Shown here one piece after another: positions 19,423 through 62,719 of a stretch of 64,000 bases of DNA. The first letter of the stretch is position 1, and the number at the start of each line of letters is the position of its first letter. Where the stretch lies: positions 19,573,483-19,637,482 of the forward strand of contig CP092884.1 of NCBI GenBank assembly GCA_030710605.1, read 5' to 3'. Position numbers and translations under genes: made by a program. This DNA is from Cordylochernes scorpioides (Eukaryota > Arthropoda > Arachnida > Pseudoscorpiones > Chernetidae). The notes beneath the pieces were generated by a model. The model had not been told where the DNA came from, did not search any database, and saw only the letters and a list, made by a program, of their open reading frames with translations.

Positions 19423-20538
19423 ATGGCTGATTATAGGCAAGTTGCTGCGGCAAGCAAAGAGAAAGCTGTACCTGTTGAAATTGTGGATCCATCAACAAAG
19501 GATTATCTACAGAGCGGTGAAAAGGCTAAATTATCCCGTTGGAAGCCTATCGATTCTCTGGGGTTAGAAGACTTCAAGGAATCCGAAGACGACGATGGAA
19601 AGTACAGTTCATCGGCATATATGGAATGGCCAGAAATCTTGAAGAAAGAAGTCTTAAGAACCGAAGCTTTAGAAAAGGCAGTCAATCTGGAAGATTCTGA
19701 GAAGGCGGCAGAAAGTCAACAACTCTCCAAAAGACATTTAGAGGAATCGAACAAACAAGGCTCGTGCATAAAAGCTGATTTAAAAACTTGGGAAGATCCT
19801 ATTGAATCCAACTTAGTAGCTGCAGAGTCTGATAATCCAGCAAGTTTCGAAAAAGAGTTGGCCGAAGGATCTGATGGAAATACTCAAGTTAACAAGCAGT
19901 ACGTGTATACACCAGACTATTCTAATATTATACTAAGGCCTTTTACAGACCAGGAAACTATCGAAGAAATGCCTGAAATTATTGAAATGGAAAACCAAGT
20001 GGAGCTCGATCTAACTTATTTAGAAAGCTGTTTAGAATTAAGCACGGTTAAAATTCTATTTACTTTTCGATCTATTTTGGAAGATAAGTATGATAAAATT
20101 GAATTGAAAGGACGTGGCCGTTTAAGTAATTGTTACAAAATCTCTGATACGGAGGTATGCAAATTTGTAATGGTGGCTAAAAATGATGCAAATAAGTATG
20201 CATCCTATTTGTATGCAGCATATAGCTTAGAAGGATTTAAATTTGAAGACGTTTCAAATGGAATTCTTGAATTACTCAATATTGAAGTAGGAAAGGTGAA
20301 ATACAAGGATACGAAATATTGTAGAAAATGCAGGTTAAACAAGGAAGAAATTGGTTTGCCATGTCACAGGCTATGTAAGACCTGCTGGATCGGTCATGTG
20401 AGTGAACATCTTTCTTCTGAGAAACTTGAAGATCCTATAACGTGTCCAAATGAAGAATGCAAAGAAACTTTGAATTCTGAAAAAAGAAAATTGTACAAAA
20501 GTAAAATTGTACAAAAGTGTAATTGTACAAAAGTGTAA
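19423..20538 (+). CDS. RBR RING1-like protein carried by LTR element
   Basis: 371 codons, intact, starting at an ATG 111 bases after the LTR. The first about 150 residues are charged and low-complexity (MADYRQVAAASKEKAVPVEI...). Residues about 210-290 form a compact mixed-charge domain I do not recognise. Residues about 301-350 carry a cysteine/histidine array: C-x2-C-x10-C-H-x2-C-x2-C-W, then C-P-N-E-E-C. This resembles RING1 of RING-between-RING ubiquitin ligases, with one residue missing in the C-x-H step. The reading frame then runs into the 16-bp repeats and stops. The later IBR and RING2 parts, which hold the catalytic cysteine, are absent. It is probably a captured host fragment that could bind an E2 or a target, not a full ligase. 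It is not a recognisable Gag. Confidence 0.7.
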   Translation: MADYRQVAAASKEKAVPVEIVDPSTKDYLQSGEKAKLSRWKPIDSLGLEDFKESEDDDGKYSSSAYMEWPEILKKEVLRTEALEKAVNLEDSEKAAESQQLSKRHLEESNKQGSCIKADLKTWEDPIESNLVAAESDNPASFEKELAEGSDGNTQVNKQYVYTPDYSNIILRPFTDQETIEEMPEIIEMENQVELDLTYLESCLELSTVKILFTFRSILEDKYDKIELKGRGRLSNCYKISDTEVCKFVMVAKNDANKYASYLYAAYSLEGFKFEDVSNGILELLNIEVGKVKYKDTKYCRKCRLNKEEIGLPCHRLCKTCWIGHVSEHLSSEKLEDPITCPNEECKETLNSEKRKLYKSKIVQKCNCTKV

Positions 20539-20940
20539 TTGTACAAAAGTGTAATTGTACAAAAGTGAAATAGTACAAAAGTGAAATAGTACAAAAGTGA
20601 AATAGTACAAAAGTAAAATTGTACAAAAGTAAAATTGTACAAAAGTGAAATAGTACAAAAGTAAAATTGTACAAAAGTGTAATTGTACAAAAGTGTAATT
20701 GTACAAAAGTGAAATAGTACAAAAGTGAAATAGTACAAAAGTAAAATTGTACAAAAGTAAAATTGTACAAAAGTAAAATTGTACAAAAGTGAAATAGTAC
20801 AAAAGTAAAATTGTACAAAAGTGTAATTGTACAAAAGTGTAATTGTACAAAAGTGTAATTGTACAAAAGTGAAATAGTACAAAAGTAAAATTGTACAAAA
20901 GTAAAATTGTACAAAAGTAAAATAGTACAAAAGTAAAATT
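20493..20940 (+). repeat. 28-copy 16-bp minisatellite
   Basis: GTACAAAAGT followed by AAAATT, GTAATT, GAAATA or (once) AAAATA, repeated 28 times without a gap. The variant order is partly periodic (a block of about 9 to 12 units recurs), which suggests growth by block duplication. Because no - strand frame of the unit holds a stop, long - strand frames of FTFVQFYFCTILLLYN-type repeats appear. They are artefacts of the repeat. Confidence 0.97.
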
Positions 20941-21233
20941 GTGGTTCCTGTGGGATTCCTTTGAAGGTGCGGAGTGACAATTCGGATCACTATGGCAAAT
21001 CAAAGGAAGCTTGTTCTGCTCCCTCTATAATAGGTGTTGTGAATGCTATTGAAGAAAGGGAGTAAAGGATTCTGAAGCGAAGCCTAAGGGCGCAGGAGTA
21101 CGAGGACTGCCTCCATTGGAAAGGCCAACCCACACACTTCGGATGCTACTACGGATGTGGCCGGATCATCAACATCTCCTGGAAGAACAGTTCGTCCGCC
21201 CAGACGTTTTGGAGAGGACTGGAGCTAATCTCT

Positions 21234-27055: not shown

Positions 27056-27289
27056 TTTATTGATATAAAGCTCAAAAACGAAAATATTCAATCTGAAGAT
27101 TAAGCAAGAAGTTTATTCTGATCGGTAAACTGAAGCACTTATAAGAAGATTAAAGGTATTTATATAGATTAAGTTAAATTATATCTATATATTGCATGTT
27201 TAAAAGCTACCCAATATTTAAATAAATTAAAAATATATATTTGTTTTAAATTATATATTGGTTTGTTTATATTAGCTCAAAAGACGAAA

Positions 27290-28484
27290 ATGGCTGAATA
27301 TAATGTTTTATCCCAAACAAAAATTGAACCATTAACAGGAAATAATTATCAAATATGGGCGTTGAAAATCGGCGCAGTTCTGAGAGGAAGAAAATTATTT
27401 AAATGTGTAATTTCAGATCCAGAACCTGATATGGAAGACAAAAGTTCTTGGGAGATTTGGAGTGATAAAAATGATGAAGCTTTTGGGATAATCATCACTA
27501 CGTTGACAAATGAACAAGCTGGAATGTTCATAGGAGAAACAAATGCTAAGAAAGTATGGGACTCACTGAGAAAAACATACACAGGCAATTTGGAAGATAA
27601 AATTATTGATATAGGCTTAGAATTAAAGAACATTAGAATGAAAGATAATGAAACTGTAGATGAATATATAACAAGGGCAAAAAATATTGCTGCTAGAAGT
27701 TCATCATTAGGGCATCAATTTTCCTCAAGAGAACTTTCATTTCATATTGTCAGAGGCATACATCCAAGGTATGAAAATATTGCTATTGTCTTACGATCAA
27801 AGAGAGAAGCAACAATTGAAGAGATTCAACAAACTCTAAGAGAAGAGGAGTCAAGAAGAAATATGAGATTGAATCAATCGGTTGAGAATGGGCATGAACA
27901 AGCATACAGAATTAAAGATAGAAAAGTTCAACAATCTCAGCCAAAAAGATGTTTTGTTTGTAATAAAAAGGGACATCTAGCTAATGATTGCTGGTTTCGA
28001 GATAAACAGAAACAAGGATACCAAAAGAAATGGAATCCTGGTTATAGAAATCACAAATACAGTAGGGAACATTCAAATAACCTAGTGGATACTATGAAAA
28101 GTGGAATTAATGAGCAAGCATTTGAAACATATGTAAAAGAATTTGAAGATTCACCAGATGAGAGAAATGATAGACAAATATGGTGTATAGATTCAGGATG
28201 CACCGCACATTTAACCCCAAACCTAACTTTGATGGAAAATGTGGTAGATTATGAAAGTGAAATCAACCTAGCTGAGAAGGGCAAAACTACCCAAGCCATA
28301 GCCAAAGGAGATATGAGACTTACTACATGCACAAGTGAAGGCCAAGAAAATATTCGCATCAAAGATATCTTACATGTACCAAGTTTAAGGAATAATTTCT
28401 TGTCAGTATACGAATTAGTCAACAAGGGAAATTCAGTTATTTTCAATAAGGATGGAGCAAAAATTTATAATGAAGGGAACTCTA
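27290..28484 (+). pseudogene. Copia Gag and protease, truncated
   Basis: An open frame from the ATG at 27290. It has the Copia Gag opening (LTGNNYQIWALKIGAVL), the UBN2-type core (VDEYITRAKNIAARSSSLGH), a CCHC zinc knuckle (CFVCNKKGHLANDC) near 27955, then the protease signature IWCIDSGCTAHLT near 28185 and ILHVPSLRNNFLSV. The protease frame ends abruptly at about 28484, where Gypsy sequence begins. Integrase, reverse transcriptase and RNase H are missing. Confidence 0.88.
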
Positions 28485-28499
28485 CAAGAAACCCTTGTC

Positions 28500-29110
28500 C
28501 AAGCGATGAAGCATGAAGCTGCCCAACAAGCTTCAAGAGGAAGTTATTGTGTGGCTAGACTAGTTAAATTGGATAATCCAGAAAGAGAAAAGGGTCGATG
28601 CTGGATCTGTGGAGCCCATGATCAAATGTCTCCAACTTTGCCCCCGTAAAGTAAAACAGCGCAGTGATACAGGTTTCTGGAAATGTGGAAAAGATGACCA
28701 CATAAGAAAAAACTGTCCAGATAACTCTAAGGATAAGCCTGAAGGAAAAAGGGGTCGCTGCTGGAATTGTGGAGCCCTTGATCACATTTCTCCAACTTGC
28801 CCCGAAAAGTAAAACAACGTAGTGATACCGACTGCTGGAGATGTGTACAACATGGCCACATGAGAAGAAACTTTCCGGAAAATTCTAAAACCACCTCAGC
28901 CCCTAGAAAGAACCATGGGAGACGGAACGATAATGCTGATGCCTTATTAAGAAGGCTTTGTGTTCCACAAAGTGGACATTGTGCTCGTGCTAAAGACAGA
29001 TTTTGTATAAGACAAGTTACAGTACAAGAAAGCGATGAAGTAGAAGAGCAACACTGGACTGGCCAAGCTTTAAGAAAGGCTCAAAGGAAGACCGAGATCT
29101 CTTGCCAATG
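28500..29110 (+). pseudogene. Gypsy Gag zinc-knuckle region
   Basis: A Gag C-terminal segment with repeated CCHC-type knuckles: CWICGAHDQMSPT (last cysteine lost), CGKDDHIRKNC with a changed first cysteine, CWNCGALDHISPTC and CWRCVQHGHMRRN. Frameshifts near 28640 and 28800 interrupt it. Such tandem knuckles bind the element's RNA. The segment ends in an HWTGQALRKAQ block near the start of Pol. Confidence 0.7.
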
Positions 29111-32048: not shown

Positions 32049-32059
32049 ATAAAGAATAC

Positions 32060-32385
32060 TTATTACTTAATACTTGAATGTAATTCTACTGTCCTATAAA
32101 CTTATGTCCATAGTTTCCTTGAAAACCATTTCTAAGATTCCATCCTTCAGTGTAGCATATAAAAGCAGAATGATCCAATACAGTATTAGAGCTCTGAGAA
32201 GCGGTCTGGTGGATTAAATTGGCGAAACCGCTGGGAGGGTTCACCACTGATGAGCCAAGCCCTCCCAATATATTTTTTCATCGCAGTAAGGACAGTAGAA
32301 GTTCGTTTTATGTATAAAAGAAACATTCGCGCTTTTAAATCCTTTTATTTTATGTGTATAGATGGCGCGTTATTGCTTTGTGTTA
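32060..32385 (+). mobile_element. retrozyme/SINE-like repeat with strand-permuted hammerhead
   Basis: 326 bp flanked by a perfect 11-bp duplication, ATAAAGAATAC (32049-32059 and 32386-32396). It shares TGTCCTATAAACTTATGTCC, the ribozyme-like core, CATCGCAGTAAGGACAGTAG and an AGATGGCGC block with the units at 61432-62575. It carries no reading frame. It inserted into the integrase linker of the outer Gypsy before the BEL element entered at its right edge. Confidence 0.85.
32199..32258 (+). ncRNA. strand-permuted hammerhead-like core, copy P1
   Basis: In order: AAGCGGU (helix III), C17 at 32206, UGGUG (helix I), linker GAUUAAA, UUGGC (helix II), GAA, ACCGCUG (helix III), linker GGAGGGUU, CACCA (helix I), CUGAUGA, GCCAA (helix II). 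Pairings: UGGUG with CACCA (5 bp), UUGGC with GCCAA (5 bp), AGCGGU with ACCGCU (6 bp). All invariant hammerhead bases (C3, U4, G5, A6, G8, A9, G12, A13, A14, the A15.1-U16.1 and G10.1-C11.1 pairs) are present. Cleavage activity is inference only. Confidence 0.6.
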
Positions 32386-32396
32386 ATAAAGAATAC

Positions 32397-32692
32397 TGTT
32401 TGAAGTTTATATGTTAATATTTTGTAATTATTCCTTTTTTTAATTCATAGAAACATTTTTCTGGCAGACATATTCAAATTTTTATCATAATGATTTTTGA
32501 TATTGTTTTTTTTCTTAATTAGTTATCATTTTGCAACTGTAGTTTCTTTTTTGTTTTGTTGTGTTCCTTTTTAAGTAATAAAATATATAGGAGTAAGGTG
32601 CAATATTCAATTCAAGCATATGGAACCAACATCGATTCATTTTTAAAACAAAGCAAAACCATAAGCTTATACAACTTTCACGTTTTCATACA
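32397..32692 (+). repeat. BEL 5' LTR
   Basis: TGTTTGAAGTTTATATG to CGTTTTCATACA. It contains AATAAAATATATAGG. TTGGTCCCTCAAGCCGG directly follows as the probable primer-binding site. Confidence 0.85.
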
Positions 32693-32737
32693 TTGGTCCC
32701 TCAAGCCGGATAGAAGCCTATAAAGTAATTAAACCTT

Positions 32738-33860
32738 ATGGATACAGAAACAGAAATAAGAAGAATCAAAAGACTAGGTCTTAATTTAGAAAAGTTGGAA
32801 AAGGAAATAGAAAACAACAAAGCCGATTGTTTTGAATTCGATGCAATATTAAAAAAAGGTCGAGAAGATTAAACAGCAGTTGGAACAAGCATATGAATAT
32901 TTTATTACAAAAGAGGAAGTAACCGATAAATATTGTACACTAGAGGTGAAAATTCTTCGGTTTACTCAACATTTTCACAATGATGCAAATTTTCCTCTAA
33001 GTTAATAAGAATTATGCTAATTTTTTGCCTAAAATAAAACTACCAATTTTTGATGGAAAAATAGAAAATTGGATTTCGTTTTCTAATATTTTTAAAACTA
33101 CTATTATTGATAACAGTCAATTAACAAATATAGTTAAATTACAGTATTTAAAGACTTGCCTGAAAAGAAAGGCTTTAGTACTTATTAATCACATACCAAT
33201 AACAAAAAATAATTTTGTTTTGGCTTGGGGTTTGTTGGAAAAAAGATATGACAATAAAAAAAAAAAAAGATATTTAACCTAAATACAAAGAATAATAGAT
33301 CTACCTAAGCTAACAAAGAATCATCTACACAACTTCTATTTTTGGTAGATAATTCATGTGAAATCATTAGATCTCTAGAAACACTTGGTTTTAAGCTAGA
33401 TTAACTTAGTGATATCATAATTGGGAAAATCCTGAGTGATAAACTAGACAAAACAACAAAGCGCAGCTGGAACATGACAATTGACAGTAATCACATACCC
33501 TCCTTTTCATAATTATTGAAATTTTAAGGAAACTATGCAAAGGCACTTAATACGAGTGAAACAGAAAAGGGATTGCCCCTAATTAAACGCTTCATGAAAT
33601 TACAAGTACACAATCTAACAAAGGCCAATTGTTTTCTATGTCAACAGAGGAGCATGGAATCTATCAATGCCCAGCTTTTTTAGGCATGGAGCCATTAGAG
33701 AGAAGGAGAAAAGTTGAACAACTCAAGTTATATTTCATCTGTTTAAGGAACAATCATTCGGTAAATCAATGTAAGTCAGAATTCAAGTGTAGAAAGTGTC
33801 AAGGAAAACATAACACATTGATGCCGCCATTCATCAGTTTAAAGAACATACAATAGAAAT
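32738..33860 (+). pseudogene. BEL Gag (broken)
   Basis: Starts at ATG 32738 with a coiled-coil-like head (RIKRLGLNLEKLEKEIENN). The signature BEL Gag block follows near 33025-33250: PKIKLPIFDGKIENWISFSN, KLQYLKTCLK and a WGLLEKRYDN end. A cysteine-rich knuckle region (CPAFLGM, YFICLRNNHSVNQC, FKCRKCQGKHN) is at 33655-33815. Frame breaks occur near 32865, 33005 and 33270. Confidence 0.82.
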
Positions 33861-33989
33861 TCCCTCAATTGAATAACCAGATAAAAATCAAGCTGAGTCA
33901 AGTGTAAAGGAAAACAATGATGCTTTGGGCGTGACCTCCATTCATAACACCACCTGTTTGATGTCTAACCAAGAGGACTCGTCTACCGC

Positions 33990-36900
33990 AACAATTATGG
34001 TGATGAATCATCAAAGAATATCAGCCTTGTAGAGCTTTAATAGATACAGCAAGTCAAGCCACACTAATAACTCGGGACTGTTTGAAGAAACTGAATTTGA
34101 AACCTTCTAGGAGAAGAGTAGAATTAGCCGGAATAGGAGGACAGATTTTGGAAAGACCCGATGGAGTAATAAATCTCAATTTCACATCCCATTTCAACCG
34201 ATCCAAAGTTTTTAAAACAAATGCTCTTGTTGTGGATAAGGTAAAAAGTTATATGCCATATTCAAAATTTAAAGAACATTAATTTCATCATTTACAAGGC
34301 CTGCAACTAGCCGATCCACAATATCAACATACCGCACTAATTGACATATTGCTAGGCGCAGATATTGCCTTTTCTCTATTCAAGGGAGCCATCAAATATG
34401 GACATGAAGGTCAACCAAAGGCAATCAAAACACTATTGAGATGGTGGCTCTTTAGAGAAATTAACATCTTTAAAAAGAAATCCAGAAACTATCAAAAACT
34501 GCACACATTCAATTTTGTACGCTCAATAAATGGGAATCAATATTTTCCTTATGGGAAGAAGAAATCGAAACCAAACCTGATCCGTTTGAAGATGATTTCA
34601 ATGAAATTCATTTTAATACAACTCATGAGAGAGAAACATCTGGTAGATACATTGTAAGATTGCCCTTTAAGGACCCCAGTTTGCTTGGAGAATAAATCTC
34701 AAGCCATTAACTGTTTTTTGAGAATGGAGCAAATCTTGAAACAACAGCCCCAGGTATATCAGACCTACAAGGATTTCATGCAAAAATACCTGGATTTAGA
34801 CCACATGAATGAGTTGAAGAAAACGGAAATAATCATAAATAATTCTACCTTCCTCATCATCCTATAATCAAAGAAAAAAGCTCTACCACAAAATTGCGAG
34901 TTTTATTCAACGCTTCTTCAAAAACAAAACAGGTTATTCTTTAAATGATGTTTTACATACAGGACCCAAGCTTCAAAAGGACATTTTCCCTTTGTTGTTA
35001 AGATTTCGATCTCACCCTATCGCTATATCTGCAGGCATCACCAAGATGTACAGGCAGATTTTAGTTCACCCAGAAGATACTCCGTATCAACGAATAATTT
35101 GGAGAGATGAATCAGGTAAAGGTTTAAAGGAGTATGAACTTAAAACTTTGACATACGGAACATCTTGTGCACCATTCTTGGCCATATCAGGGTATTGAAA
35201 CAACTGGCTCATGATGAGCAAATTAGGTTTCCAACGGCAGAAGCCATTCTTAAATCAGATTTTTATGTGGATGACTTGTTGACTGGTTGTGAAACTGTAG
35301 AAAATGGGCGCAAACTTATAGGAGAATTAGACCAATTGTTGCAAGCAGGCGGTTTTAAATTACGACAATGAACTTCCAATAAATCTACAGTATTGGACAC
35401 ACTTCAAGAAACAGACAAATCAACTTTCTATGCTAATGTTGACAGTTAGAAAACATTGGGAATGAATCTATTGGGCATTAATTGGACCCAGAAGAATGAT
35501 GAAATAGGACTGAGGAAATTTGAAATAATCAAGAATGCCCCAACTAAGCGAAATATCTTATCACAAATGGCAAAAATATATGACCCCCTTGGTTGGTTTG
35601 CGCCGGTGGTGCTTAAAATCAAGTTGATGATTCAGATATTATGAGCTGCAAAACTAACATGGGATAAGCCTATTCCAGTTGGATTACAAGAATCGTGGAA
35701 GGGATTACAAAGTGATCTAGCATCACTACACCAAGTACAGATACCTCGATGTATAAGACTTTATGAGCTTACAATTTATGAGATGCATGCATTTTCTGAT
35801 GCCTCACAAAGGGCATATGCTGCAATGGTTTATATCAAGATAATCCATAATTCCTCAATACATGATGTATATCTATTGGTAGCGAAAACCCGGTTAGCTA
35901 CTTTAAAAACCACTACGACTCCACGCATGGAATTGTGTGCATCGCTATTGCTAGTTCAGCCGACTAGACTCGTTTGTACGGCTATGTCGTTGAATATAAA
36001 CAAGGTTACATTGTGGTCAGATTCCACCATAGTGCTGAGTTGGTTGGCTTCAGAGCATAGCAGATGGAAACCCTATGTTTCTAATCGGGTAAAGGATATA
36101 CAAGAGCTATTACCATGTCGTGAGATGCACGTCAAAGGAGAGGACAATCCCGCTGATCTTGCATCCAGGGGAATATCATTGGATCAATTGCTCGATCTTG
36201 AGTTATGGTGGCACGGTCCACCATGGTTAAAAACAACATCACAACCCTATAACGACTCTATATAAGTGATAAATGAGCAATGCTTAAGTGAACGAAGAAT
36301 TAAGACTAACCTTTTTGTCAAAAGGAACATATTCATTCATAACAAGATATTCATCATTGAACAAATTAAAAAGGATAACAGGATGGATTTTTCGTTTCTT
36401 CTTTAATTGTCGAAAACCTCTCAAAAAAGAAAAATCCGGAGCATTATCACTTGAAGAAATTGAGACCTCTTTCAACAGAATTATTCGATGTGTGCTCAAC
36501 AAGAGGATTACTAAATAGATTTGAGACAATTAGGGGCCTTACAACCTTTAAGTGGGAGAAGTCCTTTAATAAAATTGAATTCTTTTCTTGATAAAGATGA
36601 ATTACTCAGAATGGGTGGACGATTAAATAATGCCTTTTTGAGTTTTGATCAAAAACATCCAATTATTTTACCTAAGGCACATTATATTACTCAATTAGTA
36701 ATAAGATATTACCATGATAGACTATTAGATGCAGGTGTACAATTAACTCTATCCGCCATCAGAGAAAAATATTGGATACCATCCGGACGATGTCTAGTAA
36801 AACAAATTCTGTTTAAATGCATTAAATATGCTAGATTTAGAACAAAGGCTGTACAACAACTGATGGGCAATTTGCCGACATCACGGATCAATTGAACAAG

Positions 36901-37790
36901 ACCATTCACTAAAACAGGATTTGTTTTGCTGGACCGGTGATTGTGAAAACATCGAATTTGAGAAATGCAAGATGTGATAAGGCTTATATTGCATTATTCA
37001 TCTGCATGTTCTCTAAAGCCATACACATAGAACTCGTTACCAACTTAACAACAGAAGCCTTCCTGACTGCTCTTCGGAGATTTATTGCCCGTAGAGATCA
37101 ACCGGCAGAAATAAACGCTTATATTGCAACTAATTTTTTTCCGGAGCTTACAAAGACTTAAGAAAGTTATTCAATTCAAACATTCATGACTTTGCTTCTT
37201 CAGAAGAAATCAAATGGGATTTTATAGCTCCATCCTCACCTCATTTCGGAGGACTATGGGAGGCAGGAATAAAATCTGTAAAATATCATCTACGTAGAAT
37301 CGTGAGGAAAAATAAATTAACATTTGAAGAATTACCAAATGTTCTAACCCAAATAGAGGCATGTCTAAATTCAAGACCATTGTGCCCTCTAACAGATGAC
37401 CCTGAAGACTTGATTGCGTTGACGGCAGGACATTTCCTCATTGGAATGTAACTGACTGCAGTCCCATCCCTAGTTAGAGATAGCGGTTCCAGTCTTAAAG
37501 GAAGATGGCAATTGGTTGAACAGATCAAGACAGATTTTTGGAAAAGATGGCCACGTGAGTATTTTTCCAGACTACAGAACAAACCAAAATGGTTGAAACC
37601 AGTGGACAACTTCAAGATTGGAACATTGGTTTTGTTAAAAGAGGACAACCTTCCTCCTTTAAATTGGAGAATGGGACGGATCTGTCAGGTGTATCCGGGG
37701 AGAAGATGGGTTGGTACGTGTGGTTTCAGTCAAAATGGCGGATGGAGACCTCAGAAGAGCTGTGGCCAAAGTTTGTCCTCTTCCACTTGA
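33990..37790 (+). pseudogene. BEL Pol (protease, RT, RNase H, integrase; broken)
   Basis: Protease signature ALIDTASQATLIT near 34030. The reverse transcriptase runs from about 34380 to 35370, with KMYRQILVHPEDTPYQRIIW and the catalytic FYVDDLLTGCE near 35265. RNase H begins AFSDASQRAYAAMVYIK at 35788 and continues with RMELCASLL and TLWSDSTIVLSWL. The integrase has its zinc region near 36690-36850 (HYHD-type, then CIKYARF), IALFICMFSKAIHIEL near 36990 (first aspartate) and DFIAPSSPHFGG-like residues near 37220 (glutamate region). Many frameshifts and stops are present. Confidence 0.85.
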
Positions 37791-37890
37791 CTGTCCTACT
37801 ACCTAGACTTGAATCTTTGTTTGCTGATTTTCTTTTCTTTCTACTCCTGTCATTATCAAATGTTGATATTGTAATATCAAGGGGGGAGGA

Positions 37891-38027
37891 TGTTTGAAGT
37901 TTATATGTTAATTTTGTAATTATTCTTTTTTTTCAATTCATAGAAGCAATTTTCTGGCAGACATATTCAATTTTTTATCATAATCATTTCTGATATTGTT
38001 TAGTTTTTTCTTAATTAGTTATCAAAT
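37891..38027 (+). repeat. BEL 3' LTR, left part
   Basis: Begins TGTTTGAAGTTTATATG after a purine tract (AAGGGGGGAGGA). It is cut at 38027 by the LINE, whose 16-bp duplication TAATTAGTTATCAAAT occupies 38012-38027. Confidence 0.85.
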
Positions 38028-41734: not shown

Positions 41735-43962
41735 ATGGCTCAGATTCAACCTCCAGAAACTTTCGACTTCTCGACTCCCAACGAATGGCCCAAATGGAGG
41801 AAGAGATTCGAACGATACCTCGTGGTCAGTGGAATGAAGAAGAAAGAGGAGGCGGACAAGATCGATTTGTTCATGTACTTGATGGGCGACCGCGCGGATG
41901 ATATATTCAGGACCTTCAAGTTCGAAAAGGAAGAAGAGGCAACGAAAATTGATTCCGTCCTCAAGGCGTTCGACAGCCACTTCTGTGTCAGAAAGAATAT
42001 TATCTACGAACGTGCGAAATTTAATTCAAGAATCCAAGAGGATCGGGAGCCAGTGGACGAATTCATCACTTCATTGTACAAATTGGCTGATAGTTGCGAA
42101 TTTGAGGGTCTTCATGAGCAGTTGATCCGTGACCGAATTGTGGTTGGAGTGAGGGACAAAGCTTTATCTGAAAGAATGCAGTTGGACAGCGAACTGACTT
42201 TGGAAAAGGCGGTGAAGATGGTTCGACAGCAGGAAGCCGTTCGACAGCAGCAAGTCGACCTGCAGCGTCCCTCAACAAGCCAAAAGGTCAATCAGGTGAA
42301 GTTCAACTCGAAGAAGCAATCACCGAAACAACAACAGCAGCCTTCGAAGAAGAAGGAGAAGTCAGCCAAAACAAGATCACGATGTCCAAAGTGCGGAGGT
42401 TTCATCCACAGGGAAGGACAGGCTTGCCGTGCTGAAGGACAAAGATGTAACCTATGTTCAAAAACTGGCCATTTTGCAAATTGCTGCCCAGATAAGCAGG
42501 CGAAGACTGCGGAAGTCAAAGCTGTTTCTGAACTTGATGAAGAAATTGGTTTTCTCCTGGAGGTCTCAGCTGTGGAGGATTCATCTAATCTCGATGATGA
42601 TGAAGACGAGTGCAGGAGGCGATGGACAGCAGAAATCCAAGTGAACGGGAATAAGGTGAAGTTTAAGCTCGACTCCCAGGCGGATGTTACATGTGTTCCT
42701 CTGTGTCTCTTCAAGAAGATAATGGGACAGCAACGACTAATGGAAAGTGATATCAACATTAGAGCTGCTGAATTTTCCGAACTTCAGACTGTGGGTATGT
42801 TTATATCAACGCTGCGAAATGGCAATTATGAAATCAAGGAGAAGATTTATGTCATTCGTCGTTTGAGTGAACCTCTTCTGAGTCGCCGGGCATGTGAGCT
42901 CTTGAACCTGGCGAGGCGGATTGAAGTGGTTGCGACGAGAATTAACCCGATCAAGGAATTCCCTGAAGTATTTGAAGGACTGGGACAGATCGGAAACCCT
43001 TACGAAATCAAATTGAAACCTGGAGCTAAACCATATGCTGTGCATACTCCTCGACGGGTACCAATACCTTTGATGGAAAAGCTCAAAACAAGATTGGAAG
43101 AGACCGACAAAGACGAGATGTTGACGAAGATTTTTGAAGCTCAACAAGAAGATACGACCCTGAAAGCAGTAGTCAACTACCTTGAGCATGGCTGGCCAGA
43201 TAAGAAGAAGATGTCACAGACTCTGCTCTCTTATTGGCATGTCAAGGATGAACTCGGCGTTCAAAATGGACTACTGATGCGTGGCTGTCGTCTTGTTATT
43301 CCAGCAAGTATGAAACTGGAGATCCTAGATAAGTTGCACGCTGGGCACTTCGGGATTACAAAAACAAGACTTCGAGCACGTGAGACGGAATGGTGGCCTG
43401 TAATTTCGGAAGAGATCGCGGAAACGGTCAGAAAGTGCAGTGTCTGTATCCAGGAAGCCGTCTCAAAACATGAACCTTTGATACCAACGAACTTTCCTTC
43501 ACGACCGTGGCAGAAGATTGGAATGGATTTGTTCAAGTTCGAGAATAAGTGGTATCTAGTCGTCATTGACTATTATTCTCGCTTTCCTGAAATGATTCAG
43601 CTGGATCGGCTCACAGCCAGTGTGGTGGTGCGTAGTTGCAAATCCATATTTGCCCGACATGGAATACCAGAAACTGTTGTAAGCGATAATGGGACGCAAT
43701 TTGGAGCTGCTCGTGAGTTTGCAAATTTCGCAAGGCAGTACGGATTCACACATGTCACTTCAAGTCCTCGATTCCCGCAGAGCAATGGGATGGCAGAAGC
43801 AGGTGTGAAAATTGCTAAGTTGATCCTCAAGAAAAATCAAGACCCATCGCTTGGACTCCTGGAGTATCGATCGACCCCTTTGGAGAACGGTTACAGCCCT
43901 GCTGAGCTTCTCATGGGACGTAAACTCCGAACGACCTTGCCAATTGCACCAGAGAATCTTAA
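41735..43962 (+). CDS. Gypsy Gag-protease-integrase polyprotein lacking RT and RNase H
   Basis: One open frame of about 743 codons up to the piggyBac. Gag occupies residues 1-210 (PNEWPKWRKRFERYLVVSGM near the start). Zinc knuckles around residues 215-255 include CNLCSKTGHFANCC. The protease (VKFKLDSQADVTCVP, near 315) has DSQAD where DSGAD is expected. A short stub of the reverse transcriptase entry (VHTPRRVPIPLMEKLK, near 43050) follows. The frame then passes straight into the RNase H-integrase linker. The integrase has an HHCC domain (LHAGHFGITKTR...CSVC), WQKIGMDLF, VVIDYYSRFPE, VVSDNGTQFGA and SPRFPQSNGMAE. Its frame would continue at 46216-46633 without the insert. Confidence 0.9.
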
Positions 43963-46211
43963 CCCTTAACTGGACGGGTGATTTTTTCTTACGTAACTGG
44001 ACGGGGTGGGTAGATTCAACCCACTTATGTACCTTTACGAAATAAGCGCTAAATAATGAATTAAATCAATATTTGAAAGATTATTTAATGATTACAAATG
44101 TTAATATACAGATTTTGACTTCTAAAAATTCTAAATATAATCTATTTACAGTTTTCACAAATAATTAAGAAATGTTTTTTTACAGACGCTTAGTTGACAT
44201 ACAGAGCATAAGGTTTTCACTTTTCCCGCATTTTTTGATGGACATTTGTAGCACCTTTTTGGAGTATCAGATTCTTGTGGCATCGTAGATCCTCTTGATG
44301 TACTAGAACCATCATTATTTTAGAATTTTTTTTATTGTAGTCTGTAATTCCAGCGGGAGGGAATTTAGATTACGTGTGGCCAGATGTTCATCAATCAAGG
44401 ATCTCCCAAGATCAACAATAAAGATACTTCTTTCTTTTTTATCCTTTTTATCAATCTGATAGTTGAAGATGATGTAAGAATTCAGAGCTGTGATATCTAA
44501 GAGGGCATAAAAAAGTGCCAAAGGCCATCTTCTGGATCGACGAGAGGTAGAAAAATTAGAGACCATTTGGTCAATGGTATCTACACCTCCTTTTGTAGAT
44601 TATAATCCATTATAATGTCAGGTTTTCCTGTTGTTTCATCACATTTATTGTCATGATGCATCGAAGATATAAGGATTACTGATTTTCTTTTTTTGGGAAC
44701 ATAGGAGACTAAAGTTTTTGTTCCAGAGAAACCAAAAATAGATGTTCCTGATTCTCTTTTAGGATGCGGTTGAAATTGTGGTGGAATCTGAGGTTTGTTC
44801 TTTCTCATCGTTCCTAAATATGTAAGGCCATGTTCTTTCAACTTATCAACTAATTCTATTGAAGTAAACCAGTTGTCTGCTGTAATATTTCTATTACTCT
44901 TCCAAAGTGGTCGACTAATATCTAAAACTATTTGGGTTGGCAGGGATGTTTCTTTTGACTTTGGAGTTTTAGATTTTCCTGTATATACCATTGCATTATA
45001 CATATAATGTGTTCTTGAGTCTGTTAGTATCACTATTTTTATCCCATATTTATTAGGTTTTGAGGGTATATAAATTTTGAATGGACATTTTCCCCGAAAC
45101 CCTACAAGCATTTCGTCAACAGTAAGGTATTCAGCAGGTGTATAACAACTTTGAAATTTTTCAATAATGGATTGGAAAATATATCTCTTATGGGTGAGAG
45201 TCTATCTTCTTTGCATCTTGTCTTGAAATTATCAAATCTAATACAAAGTAATAGAAAAAGGAAACGCTTCACACTCATTACAGAGCGAAAAATGTCACGG
45301 CCTGTTCCATCTGAGGCAAACAAAGATTCTACATTTTCATGACCTGATTTGTAAACTCCAGCTAGATACAACAAACCTAAGAATGCTCTTATTTCTATTT
45401 CACTTGTAAAATTTGAGTAAGTACTTTTGGTCAAATCTGAAATTCTTTGGCGAAATTCTTCAATTTTTGCATTTGTAAATTCAGATATTTGTTTTATAAT
45501 TGCAGCAGTAAAAAATAAGCTGAATATATCTATGCCACAATTTGGCTTCGGTTTAGCAGGGCCTTTCAGACCAGGTAAGTGTGTAATTATGTTATGAGAA
45601 CAGGTTCTTCCAATTATTGCATGATTCTTGTTCCACTTATAGCCATTTTTCCCAATGAAACAATTACTTGAAGACATTTGAACAGTGGTAAGAATTGAAT
45701 CACATTCCTCATCTGTACTGACATCTGAAGATTCGTTCAATGAATAATTTTCAGTTTCAGAATCATCGTCAAAATTCTTATTCAAAATTTCGTCTTCCAT
45801 TATAAATAGAATTTCAAAAATAAAAAGTCTTACCTTGATAAAAAAAAATTAAGGAAGTTGTTTTTTTTTAATCTAAAAGAATAAATTCTACTTAGCCAAA
45901 GAAAGAAGTCTTATTTTATGAATGGAAGCTAAAAAATGGCGGAAGAAAGCGACTCGAGAATGAGCAATCAGCTATAACCCTAACATGAAAAATTCTCACG
46001 CTTCTGGACGGCATGGGCGGAATCCGCCCACACATGCAAATTTAACCGCCCTCCCAAAACTTATATTTTTAAACGATGAATGGAAATTGTTTGTATCACT
46101 GTAAAATTAGAATACACCAAAGCTGTTAGCTCTCAGTAAACGAAAAATATATTTTTTTCCTATATTAAGTTTATGCATGGGCGGAATCTACCCAACCCGT
46201 CCAGTTAAGGG
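43963..46211 (-). mobile_element. piggyBac element inside the second Gypsy
   Basis: 2249 bp with perfect 16-bp inverted ends (CCCTTAACTGGACGGG and its complement), flanked by TTAA at 43959-43962 and 46212-46215. Its insertion created the stop that now ends the Gypsy integrase frame. It carries one transposase gene on the - strand. Confidence 0.95.
44163..45800 (-). pseudogene. piggyBac transposase (two frameshifts)
   Basis: Starts at 45800 with an acidic head (MEDEILNKNFDDDSETENYS). The DDE_Tnp_1_7 core follows: FTSEIEIRAFLGLLYLAGVY, SVKRFLFLLLCIRFDN, then the first catalytic aspartate in YLTVDEMLVGFRG (about 45120). The second is in ITADNWFTS (about 44895) and the third in VDTIDQMVS (about 44575). 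The C-terminal cysteine-rich domain (CYKCPSKN, then CSVCQLSVC) ends near 44163. One frameshift near 45165 and one near 44620 (a lost base before CTACAAAAGG) break the gene. Otherwise it is well preserved, so it is young. Confidence 0.88.
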
Positions 46212-54539: not shown

Positions 54540-54725
54540 TATCAATTAGAAACTCTCCGACAAGAGAATGTCTATCCTAAAGGACAACACCTAGTTGCAG
54601 AGCCAAAGTGTCCATTAGGGAGAGGTTCTACACTGTAGTACAATATCCTAGGCGGTTTAATAGATTAAATTGACCAAACCACTGAAGGGTTCACCACTGA
54701 TAATCCAAGTCCTTCCAATTGATAT
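54540..54725 (+). repeat. decayed copy of the permuted-hammerhead repeat
   Basis: Carries GGCGGT, GATTAAATTGACCAAACCAC, GGGTTCACCACTGATAATCC and CCTTCC in the same order as 32199-32270. The core is damaged (GAA and CUGAUGA both changed). The outer pairing GAAGG with CCTTC is kept by paired changes relative to GGAGG with CCTCC. The preceding block (54545-54640) has a relative at 15843-15910. Confidence 0.55.
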
Positions 54726-56167: not shown

Positions 56168-56578
56168 CTGACTGTTAAGTTCTGCAGGAGTATGAAATCT
56201 AAGAAAATAGCGCGCCACATTTACATCAAATTTGAAACTATTTAGAGAAATTTCTTTCTTTCTACCACCAAAACAACTCTCTACTGTTCTTTCTCCGATG
56301 GAAAATATTGAAAGAGTCTGGTCACCATTAGGGGTGAAAACTTCCAGTGGTTTCGTCAGTTTGAACTATCCTTACCGAATATTTCTTTCTTTGCCTTCGT
56401 TTCACTAAGACCTCGAATTGATACGTTGAAAGCATCTTTGAAATCTCGAAAGGATAGAAAATGGAAAAAAAGTTATTTATGAATTTATAACGAAAAAGAT
56501 GTATTCTGAAAGATTACATCGATCAACTGGATTTAAGAAAAAGGTATATCCTGATCATGTAAATGAAGGCCTCTGAAA
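56168..56578 (-). repeat. intron with a decayed permuted-hammerhead repeat
   Basis: On the - strand, 56370-56275 reads TTCGGTA, CTGACGAAACCACTGG, CACCCC and a CAGACTC end, a worn relative of the 32199 core. The CUGAUGA box is lost. The rest of the intron shows nothing. Confidence 0.45.
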
Positions 56579-60986: not shown

Positions 60987-61523
60987 TACAGTGGTACCTC
61001 GACATACGAGTTTAATTCGTTCCGCAACCTTGCTCGTATCTTGAATTACTCGTATCTCGAAGCAAATTTCCCCATACAAAACAATTGAACTACCATTAAT
61101 CCGTTCCAACCTCCAAAATGTCACCCCAGTTATTTTTGTTACGTGGTTTTAAATAATAAAAACCTATTTATAAATATCAAATATTTATTGAACAAAAACA
61201 AAAAAGAGAATGTCAAGAAATAAATTAGATATCCTCACTTGTCTTTGCCTTTTTCGCTTCATTTTTCTCGCTTTCACCTGTAGGCCGTTTAGAAAAAAAC
61301 ATGTCCAAGGAGGTTTGTTTCTTCCTCCCTGTTTTTGCTTTTCCTAAAATGTTTCTTTCTTCTTCTTCATTATTATTTGTTCTATATGCAAAGCTTTGTT
61401 TTTTGAGACTTGAATAAACAAATTCAAGTTTAAATTATAAAACTATTTTAGAGGCGTAATATTCTTTTTAAAATAAAACAATTTCTACTGTCCTTACTGC
61501 GATGGAAAAATTAAAGGGAGGGC

Positions 61524-61583
61524 CTGGCTCATCAGTGGTGAACCCTCCCAGCGGTTTCGCCAGTTTAATCTACCATACCGCTG
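61524..61583 (-). ncRNA. strand-permuted hammerhead-like core, copy P4
   Basis: Same as P2 (62005): CAGCGGU, A17, UGGUA, linker, CUGGC, GAA, ACCGCUG, GGAGGGUU, CACCA, CUGAUGA, GCCAG on the - strand. All core bases are present. Confidence 0.6.
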
Positions 61584-61894
61584 TTATATTGCATTTTTGG
61601 AACTTCCTTTTATAGGTGACTGTTGTAAGACTCTTGGAATGGGTATTTTAGAAGAACTATGGACATAAGCTTTTAGGACAGCAGAATTAAATATATTTAT
61701 AAATATATAATATGCTTCGAGCAATCGCTCTTCCGCAAATATCAAATTGTGTCTTTTATTAGAACAATAATGTTATGATGTACTAGAGCGCCATCTGTTA
61801 TTAAATTATTAAACTATTTTAGAGGCGTAATATTCTTTTTAAAATAAAACAATTTCTACTGTCCTTACTGCGATGGAAAAATTAAAGGGAGGGC

Positions 61895-61954
61895 CTGGCT
61901 CATCAGTGGTGAACCCTCCGAGCGGTTTCGCCAGTTTAATCTACCATACCGCTG
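61895..61954 (-). ncRNA. strand-permuted hammerhead-like core, copy P5
   Basis: As P4 but with ACCGCUC in place of ACCGCUG, which leaves six of seven helix III pairs. The core is otherwise intact. Confidence 0.55.
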
Positions 61955-62004
61955 TTATATTGCAACAGTCACCTATAAAAGGAAGTTCCAAAAATGCAAT
62001 ATAA

Positions 62005-62064
62005 CAGCGGTATGGTAGATTAAACTGGCGAAACCGCTGGGAGGGTTCACCACTGATGAGCCAG
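62005..62064 (+). ncRNA. strand-permuted hammerhead-like core, copy P2
   Basis: CAGCGGU (62005-62011), A17 at 62012, UGGUA, GAUUAAA, CUGGC (62025-62029), GAA, ACCGCUG (62033-62039), GGAGGGUU, CACCA (62048-62052), CUGAUGA (62053-62059), GCCAG (62060-62064). Helix III 7 bp, helix II 5 bp, helix I 4 bp plus A-C. A rival hairpin GGGAGGG (62039-62045) with CCCUCCC (62066-62072) is possible. Confidence 0.6.
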
Positions 62065-62375
62065 GCCCTCCCTTTAATTTTTCCATCGCAGTAAGGACAG
62101 TAGAAATTGTTTTATTTTAAAAAGAATATTACGCCTCTAAAATAGTTTTATAATTTAATAACAGATGGCGCTCTAGTACATCATAACATTATTGTTCTAA
62201 TAAAAGACACAATTTGATATTTGCGGAAGAGCGATTGCTCGAAGCATATTATATATTTATAAATATATTTAATTCTGCTGTCCTAAAAGCTTATGTCCAT
62301 AGTTATTCTAAAATACCCATTCCAAGAGTCTTACAACAGTCACCTATAAAAGGAAGTTCCAAAAATGCAATATAA

Positions 62376-62435
62376 CAGCGGTATGGTAGATTAAACTGGC
62401 GAAACCGCTGGGAGGGTTCACCACTGATGAGCCAG
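62376..62435 (+). ncRNA. strand-permuted hammerhead-like core, copy P3
   Basis: Same as P2 at every core and helix position. One base differs in the downstream CCCUUCC segment, which weakens the rival GGGAGGG hairpin. Confidence 0.6.
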
Positions 62436-62719
62436 GCCCTTCCTTTAATTTTTCCATCGCAGTAAGGACAGTAGAAATTGTTTTATTTTAAAAAGAATAT
62501 TACGCCTCTAAAATAGTTTTATAATTTAATAACAGATGGCGCTCTAGTACATCATAACATTATTGTTCTAATAAAAAATTCAAGTTTATTATATTTTTGT
62601 GTGCTTTTAAAGGTCCTCCTCATCCACCATGTAGACCAGTAAGAACTCTTCTGTCTCCATCTTTCGCTCCTAGCTCAACTTTTATCTGTTCACGGAACTC
62701 AGAATGTTCCGGAAATGAG

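What the first reader, a model, noticed from the sequence alone, without database searches (positions are those of the whole stretch)
32199..32258. A hammerhead-like ribozyme core with its strand blocks in a non-canonical order
Seen: within 60 nt there are three blocks. A is helix III strand, U16.1, H17, helix I strand (AAGCGGU-C-UGGUG). B is helix II strand, GAA, helix III strand (UUGGC-GAA-ACCGCUG). C is helix I strand, CUGAUGA, helix II strand (CACCA-CUGAUGA-GCCAA). All three helices pair (5, 5 and 6 bp) and all invariant hammerhead bases are in place. Known: in natural types I, II and III the cyclic block order is A, C, B. Here it is A, B, C, which circular permutation cannot produce. Inference: the core either folds as a pseudoknot through the 7-nt (GAUUAAA) and 8-nt (GGAGGGUU) connectors, or uses A and C of one unit with B of the next unit in a tandem transcript, which would restore the ordinary order. 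Predicted cleavage is after C32206. To my knowledge this topology has not been described.
Basis: partly seen in the sequence, partly recalled or inferred. Interest (0 to 1): 0.92.

Follow-up and report, generated by a model that had tools for sequence, protein, structure and literature searches.

The report
Rearranged hammerhead ribozyme in pseudoscorpion retroelements
A tiny self-cutting RNA whose parts come in a scrambled order, a form described in 2023 from environmental RNA, sits here in tens of thousands of copies of a jumping element in a pseudoscorpion's genome; cutting itself was not tested.

Summary
In detail: window 32200-32266 holds a hammerhead core in the order site block, GAA block, CUGAUGA block. 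The topology is not new: it is the 'type-SGC' non-circular permutation, shown to cleave in 2023 (PMC10085705), found then only in metatranscriptomes.

New is the context. The host is the pseudoscorpion Cordylochernes scorpioides. The ribozyme lies in a non-coding repeat of about 372 nt with target-site duplications and head-to-head inverted copies, whose ends fall at two sites about 33 nt apart, like the 'tail' of Penelope-like elements (PLEs). A conserved part occurs 64,828 times in the genome, the window's exact 67-nt core 10,069 times. Three families show compensatory changes. A fourth, strongly diverged SGC ribozyme with intact helices lies upstream of a GIY-YIG frame in a repeated PLE-like element.

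I conclude: a retrozyme-like animal element using an SGC hammerhead instead of type I. Cleavage and circular RNA were not testable; the PLE reverse transcriptase was recognised by eye only.

The parts
32069..32387 (+). family-1 retrozyme-like copy, 319 nt of a 372-nt unit (unit positions 235 to 181 around the cut site)
   Evidence: 98.7% identical to an array unit
32049..32060 (.). left target-site duplication ATAAAGAATACT (8 nt of other sequence lie between it and the copy)
32386..32397 (.). right target-site duplication ATAAAGAATACT
32200..32266 (+). type-SGC hammerhead core
   Evidence: exact copy 10,069 times in the genome
32206..32207 (+). predicted cut between C32206 and U32207
   Evidence: inference by analogy with PMC10085705; not tested
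32200..32205 (+). helix III 5' strand (partner 32227-32232)
   Evidence: 6 of 6 pairs
32227..32232 (+). helix III 3' strand
32207..32213 (+). helix I 5' strand (partner 32240-32246)
   Evidence: 7 of 7 pairs here; the fifth pair is unpaired in 19 of 40 copies
32240..32246 (+). helix I 3' strand
32219..32223 (+). helix II 3'-side strand UUGGC (partner 32254-32258)
   Evidence: 5 of 5 pairs
32254..32258 (+). helix II 5'-side strand GCCAA
32224..32226 (+). GAA (G12 A13 A14)
32247..32253 (+). CUGAUGA (C3-A9)
32233..32239 (+). helix IV 5' strand (I-II interaction stem)
   Evidence: 7 of 7 pairs
32260..32266 (+). helix IV 3' strand
61430..62576 (.). family-2 insertion: head-to-head inverted copies of a 371-nt unit, TSD AAATTCAAGTTTA at 61420-61432 and 62576-62588
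61514..61584 (-). family-2 SGC core
61885..61955 (-). family-2 SGC core
62004..62074 (+). family-2 SGC core
62375..62445 (+). family-2 SGC core
54649..54718 (+). decayed SGC core
56310..56381 (-). decayed SGC core

Best explanation
A non-autonomous, PLE-mobilised, retrozyme-like element of a pseudoscorpion whose processing ribozyme is a type-SGC hammerhead. Proposed cycle: a locus, often a tandem or inverted multimer, is transcribed; in each unit hairpins III and IV fold locally; their loops pair with each other (helices I and II) and build the hammerhead core; the RNA cuts after C32206, giving unit-length RNA of about 372 nt; a host ligase may close it; the PLE reverse transcriptase/endonuclease copies it, starting about 148 or 181 nt after the cut, into target DNA with 9-17 bp duplications. 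Shown here: structure, covariation, copy number, tandem units, TSDs, two preferred ends, and an SGC ribozyme upstream of a GIY-YIG frame in a repeated element. Inferred: self-cleavage, circularisation, PLE mobilisation.
For: Core and four helices complete; 0 in 30 resamples; 64,828 partial and 10,069 exact copies, controls 0; 92.8% of 917 cells paired against 35-53% for slid structures, 6 of 23 pairs changed on both sides, in all four helices; a strongly diverged SGC core with all helices paired and 8 of 20 pairs changed on both sides when added; tandem units of 371-373 nt; TSDs in 24 of 56 complete insertions, and one short and one long end in 20 of 23 inverted insertions (second figure tallied by hand); PLE tail and inverted-copy precedents; direct copies of the diverged SGC region 5,265 bp apart around a GIY-YIG match; SGC ribozymes with the same four stems cleave in vitro.
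Against: No cleavage, transcript or circle could be tested. In 32 of 56 complete insertions no significant TSD was found, and 3 of 23 inverted insertions lack the two-end pattern. Family-level covariation rests on few events inherited by many copies. Helix I is short or interrupted in part of the copies: its fifth pair is unpaired in 19 of 40, and the inner pair of III in 7 of 40. The RT of the GIY-YIG element was recognised by eye only: no Pfam RT match, no homologue for the piece tested. Of three regions near GIY-YIG frames only one showed the PLE-type SGC. The circular fold of family 1 is no better than shuffles (35 of 100 as low).
Confidence: 0.78

Rival explanations
1. In multimeric transcripts the core is built from A and C of one unit and B of the next: an ordinary hammerhead order, with helix II closed over about 330 nt; the monomer is inactive.
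For: Tandem arrays exist, up to 8.7 copies of 373 nt; helix IV could also form in this fold; axolotl retrozyme hammerheads work better as dimers (PMC7229834).
Against: It needs the local 6-bp hairpin III, present in the MFE fold, to open; single copies keep the full core (window 32069-32387); published SGC monomers cleave in cis.
Confidence: 0.1
2. The structure is conserved but not as a ribozyme in vivo, for example as a binding site for the PLE protein or a replication signal.
For: Expression and cleavage are untested; the Anolis PLE hammerhead showed no cleavage without protein and its mutants still inserted (PMC11167929).
Against: The catalytic bases of hammerheads are kept, and the variable base at the cut (C or A) is one that hammerheads tolerate (rule recalled); a diverged SGC copy keeps the same bases.
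Confidence: 0.09
3. A chance resemblance spread by an unrelated repeat.
For: The genome is large and repeats multiply any accident.
Against: 0 descriptor hits in 30 resampled windows; compensatory changes between families; a second SGC core with largely different helices.
Confidence: 0.02

Closest known systems
Type-SGC hammerhead ribozymes (HRIMA-1 motif and variants), Eckert et al. 2023, PMC10085705 (parts 1-6 of 8 read)
   Same: Block order site-GAA-CUGANGA, conserved core, stems I-III, fourth stem joining the outer sides of I and II, two pseudoknots
   Different: Reported from metatranscriptomes only; here in nuclear DNA of a named animal, in a retrozyme-like repeat and a GIY-YIG element. 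I-II linker here 5 nt (3 nt in the L085 copy; typically 3 in the paper). Their alignments (supplement) were not available to compare
Animal non-LTR retrozymes, PMC7229834 (parts 1-3 of 6 read)
   Same: Small non-coding tandem units (150-450 bp), low G+C, TSDs longer than 4 bp, one hammerhead per unit, coexisting with PLEs
   Different: They carry type I hammerheads; this carries SGC. Circular RNA shown there, untested here
Penelope-like elements, PMC11167929 (parts 1-2 of 4) and PMC3846280 (passages)
   Same: GIY-YIG, repeated flanks (pLTR), inverted copies, optional tail of 30-40 bp at one end, short TSDs, hammerhead near the 5' region
   Different: Their hammerheads are type I-like; the repeat here encodes nothing. 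The coding element here has GIY-YIG at the start of the frame, which I recall from the Naiad group (paper not held)
Pseudoknot hammerhead, PDB 8YDC, PMC11300833 (passages and sections 4 and 7)
   Same: Hammerhead core with an extra helix IV and a pseudoknot
   Different: Pistol-like connectivity; the word permutation does not occur in it; I did not verify its block order

Membership tests
Type-SGC hammerhead ribozyme | Order site block, GAA block, CUGANGA block | tested here: met
Type-SGC hammerhead ribozyme | Conserved core bases (U16.1, H17, CUGANGA, GAAA) | tested here: met
   A32227 follows GAA
Type-SGC hammerhead ribozyme | Stems I, II and III with covariation | tested here: met
   both-sided changes in each of I, II and III
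Type-SGC hammerhead ribozyme | Fourth stem joining the outer sides of I and II | tested here: met
   7 of 7 pairs in the window and in L085; three pairs with both-sided change
Type-SGC hammerhead ribozyme | Self-cleavage at the predicted site | not testable with these tools
   bench test needed
Animal non-LTR retrozyme | Small tandem units of 150-450 bp, low G+C | tested here: met
   372 and 371 nt, G+C 0.37 and 0.34
Animal non-LTR retrozyme | Carries a type I hammerhead | tested here: not met
   the unit carries SGC; a type I descriptor finds 0 in 354,420 bases of fetched own-genome loci
Animal non-LTR retrozyme | Target-site duplication longer than 4 bp | tested here: met
   9-17 bp in 24 of 56 complete insertions, overlapping loci counted apart; none significant in the other 32
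Animal non-LTR retrozyme | Expressed as circular RNA | not testable with these tools
   no RNA data available
Penelope-like element (as mobiliser) | Two 3' ends about 30-40 bp apart (tail), inverted copies | tested here: met
   20 of 23 inverted insertions (hand tally)
Penelope-like element (as mobiliser) | GIY-YIG endonuclease in the SGC-bearing coding element | tested here: met
   PF01541 over cut-off; the 75-aa piece alone 22.5 bits against 22.6
Penelope-like element (as mobiliser) | Telomerase-like reverse transcriptase | tested here: inconclusive
   motifs seen by eye in L088; no Pfam RT match; no homologues of L088:2-1225
Hammerhead types I, II, III | Cyclic order site, CUGANGA, GAA | tested here: not met
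   within one unit the order is site, GAA, CUGANGA; it could be met only across tandem units

The most novel reading that the evidence does not exclude
In this pseudoscorpion the retroelement hammerhead is of SGC type throughout: a GIY-YIG, PLE-like coding element and its very abundant non-autonomous retrozymes both use it as their working ribozyme. SGC hammerheads would then be a functional part of animal mobile elements, and perhaps one source of the SGC RNAs seen in environmental RNA.
Probability: 0.55. Interest if true: 0.85.

Novelty: new variant of a known kind. Interest (0 to 1): 0.72.

Why it matters
[quoted passage not shown] Here they have a named animal host, a mobile-element context and tens of thousands of copies, so their activity, biology and evolution become directly testable. 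It also suggests that ribozymes of PLE-linked elements are not bound to the type I layout, and gives natural material for asking how a non-circular permutation arises, for instance by rearrangement among tandem or inverted copies. Rfam 15 at its gathering thresholds reported no ribozyme in the window or in 120 kb of loci holding many copies, so surveys that rely on it would miss these.

Tried and rejected
Chance: rejected. Canonical hammerheads nearby: none by Rfam and none by a type I / type III descriptor in 354,420 bases of fetched loci (type II not scanned); the whole-genome RF00163 search did not complete, so their absence from the genome is not shown. SGC relatives elsewhere: the pattern in viral contigs gave 7 hits, none with the SGC structure; two more viral scans and one scan of prokaryote genome contigs gave 0. 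Families with a different stem I but G-C beside the core: 6 genome hits, several looking like degraded known copies, loci not examined further. Stable circular fold: family 1 no better than shuffles (35 of 100 as low), family 2 better (3 of 100). Position inside the BEL/Pao LTR: rejected, the right TSD abuts the LTR start. Homologues of L088:2-1225: none at 1e-5 among 3,091 candidates. Rows left out: for, 40 of the 52 distinct cores were used; the 12 others had the site block replaced by an insertion junction or were very decayed. One search's core count (60 of 67) contains a misalignment and is replaced.

Full report
Observation. By coordinate, helix III pairs 6 of 6, helix I 7 of 7, helix II 5 of 5, and U, C17, GAA and CUGAUGA are in place. 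A fourth helix, IV, GGGAGGG/CCCUCCC, pairs 7 of 7 and encloses the CUGAUGA block. Hairpins III and IV are in the minimum-free-energy and centroid folds, leaving two loops of about 20 nt that hold the complementary strands of I and II. A descriptor of this order finds 5 cores in the window and none in 30 Markov resamples.

The topology is known. The order is type SGC of Eckert, Friedrich, Weinberg and Weinberg 2023 (PMC10085705; parts 1-6 of 8 read; part 6 already runs into the references, parts 7 and 8 not seen). [quoted passage not shown] Searches of the held paper library found no later report of genomic SGC ribozymes (listings; host and element terms); that covers only this library.

Host. 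The protein of window 41735-43969 has Cordylochernes scorpioides proteins as its best matches; P0003 is 100% identical over 98% of the query and lies on a contig of 64,579,471 bases, the length of the window's contig C22. It is a pseudoscorpion.

The element. The window copy spans 32069-32387 with a 12-bp TSD. Elsewhere the unit is tandem: 372 nt in L010, 373 nt in up to 8.7 copies in L009. A second family of 371 nt lies at window 61430-62576 with a 13-bp TSD. A third was found elsewhere in the genome, once as a four-copy array of 122-nt short units. The pattern GGCGAAACC-N14-26-CTGATGAGCC occurs 32,411 + 32,417 = 64,828 times, reversed control 0. The exact 67-nt window core occurs 5,122 + 4,947 = 10,069 times, control 0.

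Insertion structure. Of 56 complete insertions (overlapping loci counted apart), 24 have a TSD that at most 1 of 100 shuffles reaches; 32 do not. I tallied by hand the inverted complete insertions in that list after merging overlapping or repeated loci: in 20 of 23 one outer end lies at unit position 136-156 after the cut and the other at 174-193; the exceptions are L018, L044 and L060. This resembles the PLE tail and the two internal reverse-transcription starts of an Anolis PLE (PMC11167929, parts 1-2 of 4), and the inverted pLTR, 31-bp tail and 9-10 bp TSD of rotifer PLEs (PMC3846280, passages).

Covariation. On 40 of 52 distinct cores, 92.8% of 917 cells pair (slid structures 35-53%) and 6 of 23 pairs change on both sides: one each in III, I and II, three in IV; 2 of 500 shuffles reach 6. 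The family-level changes are helix II U-A to C-G in family 2, and helix I G-C to A-U and helix IV G-C to A-U in family 3. These are few events inherited by many copies. Against: the fifth pair of I is unpaired in 19 of 40 rows, the fifth pair of III (columns 7 and 31) in 7 of 40. Single genomic copies of the three families are 62/67, 60/66 and 57/66 identical in the core; flanks are 77-82% of aligned residues, close to the null of that loose alignment (mean 74%, maximum 88%), so the flanks are near unrelated while the core is kept, but the control is weak.

The coding element. The genome has many GIY-YIG domains: 146 matches among 150 scored of 17,015 candidates. Between one head-to-head pair (C1:8987892 minus, 8990875 plus) lie two inverted copies of a strongly diverged SGC ribozyme: III UGGCAGU/ACUGCUG, I AUGGAG/CUUCAU, II GGGCC/GGCCC, IV CUCAGGU/ACCUGAG, core CUGAAGA, linker UAA; in L085 the helices pair 7 of 7, 6 of 6, 5 of 5 and 7 of 7. 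About 950 nt downstream lies the GIY-YIG match, in a frame that opens shortly before it. The 75-aa piece scores 22.5 bits against a cut-off of 22.6; the whole domain is over the cut-off. A later frame (L088:1197-1499) looks like a PLE reverse transcriptase by eye and recall, but Pfam gave no match, and a homologue search with L088:2-1225 gave none. The 301 nt around this ribozyme match 40 of 40 scored places (1,571 candidates) at 95-100%. Two direct copies at C2:100478258 and C2:100483523, 5,265 bp apart, flank a GIY-YIG hit at C2:100479309, as pLTRs would. Of the two other regions read near GIY-YIG frames, L084 held only a degraded family-1 core and L086 no SGC core; neither was certain to cover a 5' end. 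In an alignment of four cores including L085, 96.2% of 78 cells pair (slid 32-58%) and 8 of 20 pairs change on both sides, 0 of 500 shuffles reaching this; helix IV was counted over 4 pairs only, because the automatic alignment put a gap in it.

Mechanism and limits. I propose self-cleavage of monomer units, closure by a host ligase and copying by the PLE machinery, as for animal retrozymes (PMC7229834, parts 1-3 of 6) but with SGC in place of type I. Cleavage, transcription, circles and the RT are not shown. The dimer reading stays possible for arrays.

Noticed in passing
window 32397-38024: BEL/Pao LTR retrotransposon directly beside the insertion (DUF1759, Peptidase_A17, Integrase_H2C2 and DUF5641 matches; LTR-like direct repeats 32397-32528 and 37891-38024). 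The right TSD of the SGC element abuts its 5' LTR.
   Followed up: partly
window 27263-28516: Copia-type gag frame (Retrotran_gag_2).
   Followed up: no
window 41735-43969: 744-aa open frame of a K02A2.6-like LTR retrotransposon, with many close relatives named Cordylochernes scorpioides.
   Followed up: partly
window 20371-21003: Overlapping minus-strand frames of a short repeated peptide (FCTILLLYNFTFV-like), a low-complexity repeat.
   Followed up: no
L072:4805-5286: Four-copy array of 122-nt units that carry the GAA and CUGAUGA blocks of family 3 but not a normal site block: an array of partial units.
   Followed up: no
L086:1-262: A perfect 46-bp inverted repeat at the junction of two head-to-head GIY-YIG-element copies, beside a 345-aa open stretch.
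   Followed up: no
units of families 1 and 2 (sequences): GGACAGTAGAA and TTCTACTGTCC, about 160 nt apart, are complementary in family 1 and kept with a G-U in family 2: a possible conserved long-range stem of the RNA.
   Followed up: no
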